NCBI GenBank assembly: GCA_944325225.1
Contig: CALUZQ010000005.1
Coordinates: forward strand, 1 to 64,000
DNA: 64,000 bases
Direction: 5' to 3'
From: an uncultured Elusimicrobiales bacterium
GTDB lineage: Bacteria > Elusimicrobiota > Elusimicrobia > Elusimicrobiales > Elusimicrobiaceae
Shown here: positions 38-46,933 of the stretch, piece by piece
Numbering within the stretch: position 1 is the stretch's first letter
Layout of the letters: every line of letters starts with the position of its first letter
Notes under the pieces: model-generated
Told to the model about the DNA's origin: nothing
Seen by the model: the letters and a program-made list of their open reading frames with translations, nothing else
Database searches by the model: none
Program-made: the position numbers and the translations under genes

Positions 38-65
38 TTGATTTGTTTTTTTTTTTTGATAAATT
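38..65 (+). promoter_or_regulatory. Putative promoter/leader of pilin cassette 1 with 12-T tract
   Basis: TTGATT (38-43), a 16-base spacer holding 12 consecutive T (46-57), then TAAATT (60-65), six bases before the ATG at 72. The same arrangement precedes the other three pilin genes of the window. No Shine-Dalgarno is visible, so the mRNA would be leaderless if the promoter is read correctly. The -10 matches the consensus at only 4 of 6 positions. Sequence further upstream is cut by the window edge. Confidence 0.5.
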
Positions 66-71
66 TTGCGT

Positions 72-590
72 ATGAACCGAATCTATCAAAAATCATTTTC
101 TGGCAGAAAACGCGCCGGATTTACGCTAATAGAGCTGTTAGTAGTCGTTTTGATTATTGGTATTCTGGCGGCAGTTGCTTTACCCCAGTATCAAGTAGCG
201 GTGGCAAAAGCACAATTTACACAAATGCGGGTATTGGGCAAAGCCCTGTTTAAAGCCCAGCAGCTTTATTTTATGGCTAATGGGCAGTATGCCTTGCAGA
301 TAGAAGAATTGGATATAGATTTTCCAGGAGAATTATCTGCCGATGGACAATCCATTAATGGCACTAATTTTATTTGTTTGATGAATGTGTCTGTGCATCA
401 GGAAATTTATTGTGTGCCGCGCACTGCAGAAACAGCAGCTTCCCCCAGTTATTTCCACTATTTAAATGAATCCCGCGAGTTATGCCGCGCTTATGGTACT
501 AAAGGCGGAATACAAGACAAAACATGCAAATCCTTAGGCGGAATACTAATTTCAGAAGTGGAAAATTATCGCTCTTACCAACTTCCTTAA
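72..590 (+). CDS. Type IV pilin-like protein (cassette 1)
   Basis: 172-residue prepilin-like protein. A short basic leader (about 14 residues) ends in Gly. It is followed by the classic class III signal GFTLIELL with Glu at +5 and a hydrophobic alpha1 helix, so it should be cut by a PilD-type peptidase and embedded in the inner membrane or a pseudopilus. The start is the ATG at 72; a TTG two codons earlier is also in frame. The C-terminal domain has at least four Cys, and its last part (C-x-A-x-G ... CKSLGG) resembles cassette 3 (CKSIGG). Pilin, minor pilin and type II secretion pseudopilin cannot be told apart. It stands alone, with no pilus assembly genes nearby. Confidence 0.85.
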   Translation: MNRIYQKSFSGRKRAGFTLIELLVVVLIIGILAAVALPQYQVAVAKAQFTQMRVLGKALFKAQQLYFMANGQYALQIEELDIDFPGELSADGQSINGTNFICLMNVSVHQEIYCVPRTAETAASPSYFHYLNESRELCRAYGTKGGIQDKTCKSLGGILISEVENYRSYQLP

Positions 591-4516: not shown

Positions 4517-4669
4517 ATGGTAAATATTCAGTATGGAGAATTTATAAACAAAGGGTTTACATTATAGAATTATTGGTATTTTAGTGTCTGTTTCTATTCC
4601 TTGTTCCTCGCTTGTTAGCGGGGGTTTTATTTTTAGGGGAGCAAATAAATCCGCCTAGCGGCAAGTATG

Positions 4670-11400: not shown

Positions 11401-11442
11401 GAAACGAAACCTTGTTGAAGGCAGAATTCCCAGGCCTGGAAG

Positions 11443-11528
11443 GCCGTTGCGCAAGGGCGCGACATTTCCGAAACAGTGTGGCTCCGCTAATCGTGTTAAC
11501 GGGTAAAGGAAAGGGGAGGGGCGGCTCG
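11443..11528 (+). repeat. Repeat module B, copy 1 (upstream of pilin cassette 2)
   Basis: 86-base module, matched without gaps by 46194-46279 with four differences. It begins GCCGTTGCGCAAGGGCGCGA and ends GGGGCGGCTCG. Its second half is recognisably related to the 75-base tandem repeat before cassette 3. Its last bases form a hairpin (GGGGCG-GCT-CGCCCC, 11518-11532) abutting the pilin promoter. Confidence 0.85.
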
Positions 11529-11532
11529 CCCC

Positions 11533-11556
11533 TTGACTCGTTTTTTTTGATAAATT
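11533..11556 (+). promoter_or_regulatory. Putative promoter/leader of pilin cassette 2 with shortened 8-T tract
   Basis: TTGACT (11533-11538), CG, eight T (11541-11548), GA, TAAATT (11551-11556), six bases before the ATG. The spacer is 12 bases, against 16 in the other three pilin cassettes, too short for a working sigma70 promoter. If the promoter reading is right, this copy should be off. Confidence 0.5.
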
Positions 11557-11562
11557 TTGCGT

Positions 11563-12078
11563 ATGAACAAAATCTATCAAAAAATATTCCCCGGCGAAAA
11601 AAACGCCGGATTTATGCTCATAGAGCTATTAGTGGTCGTTTTAATTATAGGCATATTGGCAGCAGTAGCGTTCCCGCAATATGAGAAAGCGGTGATGAAG
11701 AGCCGCATGAATAGCATTTTCCCATTGCTTAAAAGTATCAAAGACGCCCAGGAAGTGTATTATCTGGCCAATGGAGCATATACAAATGATTTAACAAAAT
11801 TAGATGTTCGTATTCCCCAAGAAGATTTAGAATCTAATCCTTCTAGCGGAATTACAACTTTCCGTAATGGGACATGGATTGATAGCTTTTTTGCTCAAAA
11901 TGAGAAATCTGGATGGAATTTACATGGGGGAATTGGAGATTATTTTGGGGGAGGAGATAATATCTGCTATTTTACAATCTATTTAGATCATTCAAGTTTG
12001 CCAGGTTTGATAAGGTGCTATGGAAATCATTCTCAATGTCCCTCCATTTGCAAGACATTTGATTTTGTAACGCAATAA
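11563..12078 (+). CDS. Type IV pilin-like protein (cassette 2)
   Basis: 171 residues. The leader (about 14 residues) and alpha1 helix closely match the other cassettes, but the mature N terminus reads GFMLIELL: Thr at +2 is replaced by Met, with Glu at +5 kept. The C-terminal domain diverges from the others (NICYFTIYLDH, RCYGNHSQCPSICKTF) and holds four Cys. The coding sequence is visibly more AT-rich than the flanking housekeeping genes. It lies alone between pth and tlyA, flanked by repeat modules and a bidirectional terminator. With its short T tract it may be a silent copy. Confidence 0.83.
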   Translation: MNKIYQKIFPGEKNAGFMLIELLVVVLIIGILAAVAFPQYEKAVMKSRMNSIFPLLKSIKDAQEVYYLANGAYTNDLTKLDVRIPQEDLESNPSSGITTFRNGTWIDSFFAQNEKSGWNLHGGIGDYFGGGDNICYFTIYLDHSSLPGLIRCYGNHSQCPSICKTFDFVTQ

Positions 12079-19715: not shown

Positions 19716-19767
19716 AATGGGTACAAACGATACGCGGGATAAAGCTCTGGCACAGGGTCGTTGCGAC

Positions 19768-19931
19768 AGAGTGCAACATTGCACCAACCGTGTGGCTTAA
19801 ACCAATCGTGCTGACGGGATTAGAGTGGGGAGGGGCGGCTCGCTGGTTGTTTTGTAAGAGTGCAACATTGCACCAACCGTGTAGCTTAAACCAATCGTGC
19901 TGACGGGGTTAGAGTGGGGAGGGGCGGCTCG
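19768..19931 (+). repeat. Tandem 75-base direct repeat upstream of pilin cassette 3
   Basis: Copies at 19768-19842 and 19857-19931 (period 89 bases) differ at two positions. Each contains the palindrome GTGCAACATTGCAC and ends in GGGGAGGGGCGGCTCG. The second half is a diverged relative of module B near cassettes 2 and 4. The downstream copy runs into a hairpin (GGGGCG-GCT-CGCCCC, 19921-19935) that abuts the pilin promoter. No gene is present in 19716-19969. Confidence 0.9.
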
Positions 19932-19935
19932 CCCC

Positions 19936-19963
19936 TTGACTCGTTTTTTTTTTTTGATAAATT
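19936..19963 (+). promoter_or_regulatory. Putative promoter/leader of pilin cassette 3 with 12-T tract
   Basis: TTGACT (19936-19941), CG, 12 T (19944-19955), GA, TAAATT (19958-19963), six bases before the ATG. Spacer is 16 bases, as in cassettes 1 and 4. Confidence 0.5.
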
Positions 19964-19969
19964 TTGCGT

Positions 19970-20512
19970 ATGAACAAAATCTATCAAAAATCATTCTCCG
20001 ATGGAAAAAATGCCGGATTTACGCTTATAGAGCTATTAGTAGTCGTTTTAATCATTGGTATTTTGGCGGCAGTGGCACTGCCGCAGTATGAGGTGGTAGT
20101 GGGGAAAAGCAAGGTGGCACAAATGCAGCAGCTGTGCCGATCGATGAAAGAGGCCGCGGAGGTGTATTATTTAGCCAATGGGGATTATGGCTGGACGCAC
20201 GGGCATACCCAAGGAGAACACTTGGATATTTCATTCCCGCCGGGCTGTAACAGCAATCCCAATGACGGGAGTGTTTATTGCGGGGATATTTCTTTTATTT
20301 TAAATCAAGGGTCAGAAGTCCAAAACTGTACGGCAGTGTATCAAAAGGGCCGCATTTGGCTGTCTTACAGTCACTATTTTGATCACAGTCCTTCCCGCCC
20401 CGGGCAGCGCACCTGCCAAGCGGTAGCAGGGGATTTTTATCCGCTTTCCAAGAGGGTATGTAAAAGCATTGGCGGCAACGAAGAGAGTTCCAATTTCTTC
20501 GTGCTTCCTTAA
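19970..20512 (+). CDS. Type IV pilin-like protein (cassette 3)
   Basis: 180 residues. The leader MNKIYQKSFSDGKNA is followed by GFTLIELL (Glu+5) and the hydrophobic helix shared with the other cassettes. A conserved segment AAEVYYLANGDY precedes the variable domain. That domain has about six Cys and ends in GQRTCQAVAG...KRVCKSIGG, matching cassette 1 more than 2 or 4. The first 100-odd bases of the gene are far better conserved between cassettes than the rest. It is monocistronic, between the pheT operon terminator and a convergent thioesterase gene. Confidence 0.85.
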   Translation: MNKIYQKSFSDGKNAGFTLIELLVVVLIIGILAAVALPQYEVVVGKSKVAQMQQLCRSMKEAAEVYYLANGDYGWTHGHTQGEHLDISFPPGCNSNPNDGSVYCGDISFILNQGSEVQNCTAVYQKGRIWLSYSHYFDHSPSRPGQRTCQAVAGDFYPLSKRVCKSIGGNEESSNFFVLP

Positions 20513-46193: not shown

Positions 46194-46279
46194 GCCGTTG
46201 CGCAAGGGCGCGACATTTCCGAAACACTGTGGCTCCGCTAATTGTGTTAACGGGAAAAGGAAAGGGGAGAGGCGGCTCG
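46194..46279 (+). repeat. Repeat module B, copy 2 (upstream of pilin cassette 4)
   Basis: 86 bases, four differences from 11443-11528, no gaps. Here it comes before module A, the reverse of the order near cassette 2. Confidence 0.85.
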
Positions 46280-46380: not shown

Positions 46381-46408
46381 TTGACTCGTTTTTTTTTTTT
46401 GATAAATT
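46381..46408 (+). promoter_or_regulatory. Putative promoter/leader of pilin cassette 4 with 12-T tract
   Basis: TTGACT (46381-46386), CG, 12 T (46389-46400), GA, TAAATT (46403-46408), six bases before the ATG. Hairpin directly upstream. Spacer 16 bases. Confidence 0.5.
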
Positions 46409-46414
46409 TTGCGT

Positions 46415-46933
46415 ATGAGCAAAAAATATCAAAAATCATTCCTCGGTGTTAAAAACGCCGGATTTACGCTAATAGAGTTATTAGTGGTCGTTTTAATTAT
46501 TGGCATATTGGCGGCGGTAGCGCTGCCACAGTATGAAAAAGTTGTATGGAAAAGCAGAGCCGCTAATATCAAAATATTGCTGCAAGGGTTAGTAGAAGCC
46601 CAGGAAGTTTATCGCTTGGCAAATGGAAGTTATGCTACAGATGTGAAAGATTTAGATTGGGAATTTCCTCAAGAAGGACCTTTTCAGACTAGTATTTCTA
46701 ATGATAACTATTCGCTTACTTTCTCTAATATTTTTTTTAACGAAGGTCCTTATAGCGGAAGCGGTTTTACTTATGTGCATATGAGTCGTGCACTGAATGT
46801 TAAAAATTGTATTGTCTGTGTGGAGAATACTTTTAAAACGGGGGATTTTTGTCAGAAATTATTTTCAGGCACCTTAATCAGAAATGTTTATGGTAAGCGA
46901 TATTTTTTATTGCCAGAAGAAACTTGCTCGTAA
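46415..46933 (+). CDS. Type IV pilin-like protein (cassette 4)
   Basis: 172 residues. Leader MSKKYQKSFLGVKNA, then GFTLIELL with Glu+5 and the shared hydrophobic helix. After the conserved AQEVYRLANGSYATDVKDLDWEFP the sequence is unlike the other cassettes (NVKNCIVCVENTFKTGDFCQKL), again with several Cys (at least four). Composition is more AT-rich than lepA or folD next door. It stands alone between folD and lepA with its own promoter-like leader and a terminator. Confidence 0.85.
   Translation: MSKKYQKSFLGVKNAGFTLIELLVVVLIIGILAAVALPQYEKVVWKSRAANIKILLQGLVEAQEVYRLANGSYATDVKDLDWEFPQEGPFQTSISNDNYSLTFSNIFFNEGPYSGSGFTYVHMSRALNVKNCIVCVENTFKTGDFCQKLFSGTLIRNVYGKRYFLLPEETCS

What the first reader, a model, noticed from the sequence alone, without database searches (positions are those of the whole stretch)
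11533..11562. Variable poly-T tract in the pilin promoter spacer: candidate phase variation switch
The four pilin leaders have TTGAYT, a T tract, GA and TAAATT, then exactly six bases to ATG. The T tract is 12, 8, 12 and 12 long in cassettes 1-4, so the -35/-10 spacer is 16, 12, 16 and 16. Homopolymer tracts are prone to slipped-strand mispairing, and a change in spacer length switches a sigma70 promoter. Cassette 2 would be off. Its Thr+2 to Met change fits a relaxed copy.
Basis: partly seen in the sequence, partly recalled or inferred. Interest (0 to 1): 0.72.

Follow-up and report, generated by a model that had tools for sequence, protein, structure and literature searches.

The report
Poly-T promoter shared by many pilins
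In gut bacteria of the Avelusimicrobium group, dozens of scattered pilus-protein genes are started by one shared promoter whose central run of T's is usually 12 long; gene 2 of the window has only 8, which would probably weaken it, but on/off switching has not been shown.

Summary
In detail: leaders at 38, 11533, 19936 and 46381 have T12, T8, T12, T12 between TTGAYT and TAAATT, then six bases to ATG. They are four of about 57 such pilin leaders in this 1.63-Mb Elusimicrobiales MAG; 21 of 66 congeneric genomes share the leader. At least 64 of the genome's 70 T-tracts of 10 or more belong to this element or to a sister element before secreted proteins. T12 holds in 149 of 217 leaders, and the same block precedes ordinary SD-led pilins in relatives, so TTG-N5-T12-GA-TAAATT is best read as a promoter with its spacer held at 16. 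Lengths of 5-17 occur, so slippage is likely, and tracts of 8 or fewer are enriched for broken ORFs (p = 8e-5). Phase variation is plausible but unproven. Cassette 2 is a derived short allele, but it keeps an extended -10, an intact ORF and purifying selection like controls; 'off' is not established. New here: -10, ATG and codons 2-7 form a 38-nt inverted repeat whose length is kept in leadered copies; the mRNA is probably leaderless; and at shared chromosomal sites the pilin body differs between species while leader, N-terminus and flanks are conserved.

The parts
38..74 (+). Cassette 1 leader: -35 TTGATT 38-43, T12 46-57, extended -10 TGA-TAAATT (hexamer 60-65), TTGCGT 66-71, ATG 72-74
72..590 (+). 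Type IV pilin gene 1 (172 aa)
   Evidence: N_methyl PF07963 E 4e-9
11533..11565 (+). Cassette 2 leader: -35 TTGACT 11533-11538, T8 11541-11548, GA 11549-11550, -10 TAAATT 11551-11556, TTGCGT 11557-11562, ATG 11563-11565; spacer 12
   Evidence: syntenic site carries T12 in L117, L101, L254
11563..12078 (+). Type IV pilin gene 2 (171 aa), intact ORF, GFMLIE cleavage motif
   Evidence: N_methyl 20 bits, just below cut-off; dN/dS 0.26 against nearest paralogue
19936..19972 (+). Cassette 3 leader: TTGACT, T12 19944-19955, TAAATT 19958-19963, ATG 19970
19970..20512 (+). Type IV pilin gene 3 (180 aa)
46381..46417 (+). Cassette 4 leader: TTGACT, T12 46389-46400, TAAATT 46403-46408, ATG 46415
46415..46933 (+). 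Type IV pilin gene 4 (172 aa)
54..91 (+). 38-nt imperfect inverted repeat over -10, ATG and codons 2-7 (cassette 1)
   Evidence: pair counts; genus-wide consensus TTTTGATAAATTTTGC-nTATGA-GCAAAATTTATCAAAA
11545..11582 (+). Same inverted repeat, cassette 2
19952..19989 (+). Same inverted repeat, cassette 3
46397..46434 (+). Same inverted repeat, cassette 4
11442..11529 (+). Upstream repeat module (about 88 nt) running into hairpin GGGGCGGCTCGCCCC just before TTGACT
19756..19932 (+). Two tandem copies of the upstream module before cassette 3
   Evidence: D2, 92% identical
46194..46279 (+). Upstream module before cassette 4 (95% identical to that of cassette 2)
   Evidence: D3

Best explanation
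The feature is the spacer of a pilin-specific sigma70-type promoter: -35 TTGAYT, spacer YG-T12-GA (16 nt), extended -10 TGA-TAAATT, six-base discriminator, and probably transcription from the A of the ATG (leaderless mRNA, inferred). It is used by about 57 dispersed pilin genes and, with -10 TACAGT and an ordinary leader, by a second secreted-protein family. The tract is kept at 12 by selection on promoter geometry (supported comparatively). Being a homopolymer it also gains and loses T's, so individual copies drift to 8-14 or beyond and their transcription is tuned or largely lost (inferred from the known spacer dependence of sigma70 promoters). A 38-nt inverted repeat over the -10 and start codon is most likely the operator of a common regulator (inferred). 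Cassette 2 (T8, spacer 12) is most likely a weakened, derived allele rather than a demonstrated 'off' phase.
For: About 57 copies in the genome. Over leaders from own and related genomes: T12 in 149 of 217 and spacer 16 in 148 of 214. Sequence upstream of TTG is unconserved across species (0.2-0.3 bits at -46 to -41) while TTG and the T-tract-to-ATG block stay near invariant, so conservation is not just recent duplication. Same block before SD-led pilins in other species: TTGACA-TCG-T12-GC-TACATT (L291), TTGACA-TCG-T11-GC-TACATT (L273), TTGTTT-TG-T12-GA-TATAGT (L271). At least 64 of 70 T-tracts of 10 or more in the genome are this element or its TACAGT sister. Length differs at syntenic sites (T8 vs T12 three times; T11 vs T10; T13 vs T4CT9). 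Tracts of 8 or fewer are enriched for broken ORFs. No SD in the pilin leaders, whereas many other window genes have one. Published parallels for homopolymer promoter tracts: vlp of M. hyorhinis (PMC2268961, PMC10502178), nspA (PMC6389960).
Against: No transcript data, so TSS and leaderless state are inferred from a constant 6-nt gap. All genomes are MAGs or drafts; homopolymer lengths are assembly consensus values. The T-tract is unusually pure, which a mere spacer would not need, so purity asks for a further cause (slippage function, DNA bending, or a half-site for a regulator). About 30% of leaders deviate from T12, more than strict spacing selection would leave.
Confidence: 0.75

Rival explanations
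1. True phase variation: slipped-strand mispairing in each leader's T-tract switches that pilin on (T12) and off (other lengths) reversibly within a population, giving combinatorial pilus coats.
For: Pure homopolymer in the spacer of every member of a large surface-protein family, as in vlp (PMC2268961); lengths 5-17 seen; lengths differ at syntenic sites; a second variable surface family has the same tract.
Against: T12 predominates (33 of 53 own copies; 119 of 168 others), so most copies would be on together; MutS is present, which usually damps mononucleotide slippage; in nspA a length-polymorphic promoter tract was judged to phase-vary rarely if at all (PMC6389960); no within-population data.
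Confidence: 0.35
2. The conserved block (TTG to about codon 45) works mainly as shared homology for recombination that swaps pilin bodies between loci; the T-tract is carried along.
For: At most syntenic sites flanks are 69-94% and leader plus N-terminus about 72-87% identical in DNA, but the body is unrelated (24-40% aa); the body of L193 is closest to L029 at another locus (50%); the second family shows the same split (98% over 690 nt, then none).
Against: Swaps need a right-hand crossover and no conserved 3' element was found; conservation across species with unrelated upstream sequence is better explained by promoter function; two syntenic sites keep an orthologous body (79-90%); fast divergence under diversifying selection could imitate swaps; mis-assembly at repeats cannot be fully excluded.
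Confidence: 0.3
3. The poly-T plus GATAAATTTTGC/GCAAAATTTATC repeat acts in RNA: transcription starts upstream and the ATG sits in a hairpin loop that controls translation.
For: 38-nt inverted repeat with ATG in the centre; covariation at -3/+4 (C-G to T-A) and whole inner-arm replacement in L312.
Against: The left arm contains the -10 hexamer and no conserved promoter lies upstream of it; in L312 and L296 the ATG used lies outside the repeat, yet the 38-nt length is kept.
Confidence: 0.12
4. Cassette 2 is a decaying or silent copy.
For: T8, spacer 12; association of tracts of 8 or fewer with broken ORFs; Met+2 unique among 190 classified.
Against: Intact 171-aa ORF, start and extended -10 intact, dN/dS 0.26 like controls.
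Confidence: 0.3

Closest known systems
vlp genes of Mycoplasma hyorhinis (poly-A in the -35/-10 spacer)
   Same: Homopolymer in the promoter spacer of every member of a surface-protein family; length differs among copies (PMC2268961, PMC10502178).
   Different: Here about 57 dispersed pilin genes, poly-T on the coding strand, most copies at one length (T12), switching not shown, inverted repeat over the ATG, probably leaderless.
nspA promoter of Neisseria meningitidis (5A/6A)
   Same: Homopolymer just upstream of the -10; one base changes transcription (PMC6389960).
   Different: Single gene, short tract; there too length polymorphism was not the same as frequent phase variation.
pMGA/vlhA genes of Mycoplasma gallisepticum (GAA repeats upstream)
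   Same: Large surface family, each gene with a simple-sequence tract upstream; a particular length goes with expression (my own knowledge; a GAA study is in the reference list of PMC2268961).
   Different: Trinucleotide repeat outside the spacer and typically one active gene; here a mononucleotide tract in the spacer and most genes at the common length.
Neisseria pilE/pilS antigenic variation
   Same: Type IV pilin with conserved N-terminus and variable C-terminus; large repertoire (my own knowledge).
   Different: pilS copies lack promoter and 5' end; here copies have promoter, start and, mostly, complete ORF at dispersed sites.
T-rich, extended -10 promoters of Campylobacter and Helicobacter
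   Same: T-run before an extended -10 (my own knowledge).
   Different: There a general promoter style with little -35; here restricted to two surface families, with a -35 and a pure T12.

Membership tests
sigma70-type promoter | -35 and -10 hexamers with 15-19 nt spacing | tested here: met
   TTGAYT-16-TAAATT in 3 of 4 window copies; spacer 16 in 148 of 214 leaders; cassette 2 itself has 12
sigma70-type promoter | RNA 5' end about 7 nt downstream of the -10 | not testable with these tools
   no transcript data
Homopolymer promoter-spacer phase variation (vlp type) | homopolymer between -35 and -10 in each family member | tested here: met
Homopolymer promoter-spacer phase variation (vlp type) | length differs between copies and between related genomes at one locus | tested here: met
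Homopolymer promoter-spacer phase variation (vlp type) | reversible length change within one clonal population | not testable with these tools
   one genome per species, no reads
Homopolymer promoter-spacer phase variation (vlp type) | expression follows tract length | not testable with these tools
   only indirect: broken ORFs with tracts of 8 or fewer
Leaderless mRNA | -10 hexamer at fixed 6-7 nt from the start codon and no SD | tested here: met
   six bases in the four window copies and in the family; no SD in the pilin leaders against SD-like motifs at 30 of 58 predicted window genes; the search pattern itself fixes this gap, so only the window copies are an unbiased sample
Leaderless mRNA | transcript starts at the A of ATG | not testable with these tools
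   no RNA data
Type IV pilin | prepilin cleavage/methylation motif (N_methyl) | tested here: met
   cassette 2 slightly below cut-off
pilE/pilS silent-cassette system | donor copies lack promoter and 5' coding end | tested here: not met
   47 of 57 own copies are complete ORFs longer than 120 aa with leader; most others are cut by contig ends

The most novel reading that the evidence does not exclude
A genome-wide contingency system in a gut Elusimicrobiales lineage: 50-100 dispersed pilins plus a second constant/variable secreted family all run from one slippable T12 promoter with a palindromic operator fused to the start codon, and the conserved 5' block also serves to exchange gene bodies, so both expression state and sequence of the pilus coat are shuffled.
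Probability: 0.25. Interest if true: 0.85.

Novelty: new variant of a known kind. Interest (0 to 1): 0.6.

Why it matters
If the reading holds, a little-studied gut lineage drives a very large dispersed pilin repertoire (80 matches to a pilin N-terminus in 1.6 Mb) mostly from a single, homopolymer-spaced promoter. It makes a testable case of how a multigene surface family is co-regulated and diversified: tract length can be read from existing metagenomic reads, and the promoter can be tested in a laboratory strain. The operator-like repeat that overlaps codons 2-7 suggests that DNA-level constraint shaped the first residues (M-S/N-K-I-Y-Q-K) of a protein family.

Tried and rejected
Sigma54 reading of TTTTGC (-12): no GG at the required distance upstream. 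Sigma28 reading of GATAA: the -35 is TTG, not TAAA. Intrinsic terminator (GC hairpin then T-run): 8 nt (TTGACTCG) separate hairpin and tract, and related species have the tract without the hairpin. Rfam: only two tRNAs in the window. Silent pilS-like donors: rejected, copies have promoters and mostly complete ORFs. Chance palindrome: random window 16-mers rarely match the left arm (14 or more pairs in 9 of 200,000), though the peptide MSKIYQK alone would give about 13 of 16 pairs under window codon usage, so the repeat is partly peptide-driven; Gln6 is CAA in 198 of 199 copies against 56% CAA (572 of 1014) in pilin bodies, which supports DNA-level constraint. The shuffle test for covariation (1114 vs 1094 +/- 4.4, none of 2000) ignores relatedness. 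Two core-pattern hits (L189, L192) are chance matches without a pilin and were excluded from the ORF test, as were two contig-cut tracts (L040, L041). The whole genome was not available as a file, so stretches were used. The E. minutum genome paper is not held.

Full report
Observation. The four leaders are as described: T12 at 46-57, T8 at 11541-11548, T12 at 19944-19955 and 46389-46400, between TTGAYT and TAAATT, followed by TTGCGT and ATG. Spacers are 16, 12, 16, 16.

Scale. The window is contig C5 of a 1.63-Mb draft of 55 contigs. The core TGATAAATTTTGCGTATGA with up to three mismatches occurs 57 times there, and the reversed control never. Of 53 copies with a measurable tract, 33 are T12, 10 T11, 3 T10, 4 T8, 2 T13, 1 T14 (counted). 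A pilin N-terminus query finds 80 matches. T-tracts of 10 or more number only 70 in the genome; 61 are followed by NATANANT within 8 nt and at least three others are leader variants. The tract is thus almost private to this promoter.

Distribution. In the genus set, 21 of 66 genomes have the core with at most one mismatch. Eleven congeners without it still have 20-150 pilin N-terminus matches each.

Length is held at 12. Over 217 distinct leaders T12 accounts for 149; spacer 16 for 148 of 214. Across non-window T12 leaders the 5' flank is unconserved (0.2-0.3 bits at -46 to -41) while TTG is nearly invariant (invariance from TAAATT to the ATG is imposed by the search pattern, and the T count is fixed by selecting T12 leaders for that profile, so the informative facts are the TTG and the length distribution). 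Independent support comes from pilins that the pattern could not select: in other congeners the same block stands upstream of a normal leader with Shine-Dalgarno, e.g. L291 TTGACA-TCG-T12-GC-TACATT, L273 with T11, L271 TTGTTT-TG-T12-GA-TATAGT. This identifies the block as the promoter.

Second family. Eight own-genome sites have T11-T12 followed by GA-TACAGT. The six whose ORF was read have about 105 nt of leader, then secreted proteins of 327-377 aa; the three tested have no Pfam match. L300 and L303 are 98% identical over 690 nt and then unrelated.

Slippage or switch. Tract lengths from 5 to 17 occur, and differ at loci shared between species: cassette 2 (T8) faces T12 in L117, L101 and L254; L013 T11 faces L193 T10; L034 T13 faces L068 T4CT9. 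So length changes, and T8 is most simply the derived state. Tracts of 8 or fewer carry broken ORFs in 5 of 9 cases against 9 of 193 (p = 8e-5); the threshold was chosen after seeing the data, but thresholds 9 and 10 give p = 0.0015 and 0.0006. This supports a cost of short tracts. It does not show reversible switching, for which reads or strains are needed. MutS is encoded. Published cases show both outcomes: vlp, where spacer indels switch transcription (PMC2268961), and nspA, where one A changes expression but phase variation is rare or absent (PMC6389960).

Cassette 2. Its ORF is intact, and dN/dS against its nearest paralogue is 0.26 (0.354/1.366), like two control pairs (0.22, 0.25; dS is near saturation, so this is a coarse test). 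Met at +2 is unique among 190 classified copies. With a 12-nt spacer the -35 cannot be contacted normally, but the extended -10 may keep some activity (established behaviour of such promoters). 'Weakened' is the better word than 'off'.

Inverted repeat. From -18 to +19 the consensus reads TTTTGATAAATTTTGC-nTATGA-GCAAAATTTATCAAAA. In the 166 leaders from other genomes 131 have 15-16 of 16 pairs; in the window's genome most have 14, the losses being in the inner arm, while the pairs from -11 to -19 are kept. L312 replaces both inner arms (TTTTATC...GATAAAA), and neither L312 nor L296 uses an ATG within the repeat, yet the length stays 38. At -3/+4, C goes with G or A, T only with A (p = 0.002, not corrected for relatedness). 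A DNA operator for a common regulator is the simplest reading; no protein was identified.

Body replacement. At syntenic sites the leader and first 40-45 codons align, the rest of the pilin does not, and homology usually resumes 10-260 nt after the stop. Two sites keep orthologous bodies (L034/L068 90%, L036/L084 79%), which shows that the method can see orthologues. Mis-assembly at the repeated leader is a possible error in fragmented MAGs, though G014 has contigs of 0.7-0.9 Mb.

Verdict. A real, surface-protein-specific, homopolymer-spaced promoter family with length held at T12 and occasional indels; phase variation is a fair hypothesis (about 0.35) but unproven.

Noticed in passing
L299-L307 (G000 C4:49061, C9:14907, C9:55931, C12:1588, C13:27792, C15:38094, C21:1471, C32:1166): Second T12 promoter family (-10 TACAGT, about 105-nt leader) before secreted Cys-rich proteins with constant N-half and unrelated C-halves; no Pfam match in those tested.
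   Followed up: partly
window 11442-11529, 19756-19932, 46194-46279: About 88-nt upstream repeat modules, sometimes in tandem, running into different GC hairpins directly before the -35; shared by both promoter families.
   Followed up: partly
syntenic pairs such as L013/L193, L047/L105, L011/L183, L006/L117: Pilin body differs between species at the same chromosomal site while flanks, leader and N-terminus are conserved.
   Followed up: partly
window 5239 (- strand): TTGCAC-N17-TATAAT-GTTGCT-ATG: another gene whose -10 lies six bases before the start, a possible leaderless gene outside the pilins.
   Followed up: no
L308 (G000 C22:6500-9300): Leadered pilins with T11/T12 promoter and a different long inverted repeat just after the -10 (GGCTATTGAGAAAAA-TGAG-TTTTTCTTAGCC).
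   Followed up: no
G004: At least 150 pilin N-terminus matches in a 1.5-Mb genome (scoring stopped at 150).
   Followed up: no
window 4556-4600: Short remnant resembling the pilin N-terminal coding sequence (repeat D4) without an ORF.
   Followed up: no
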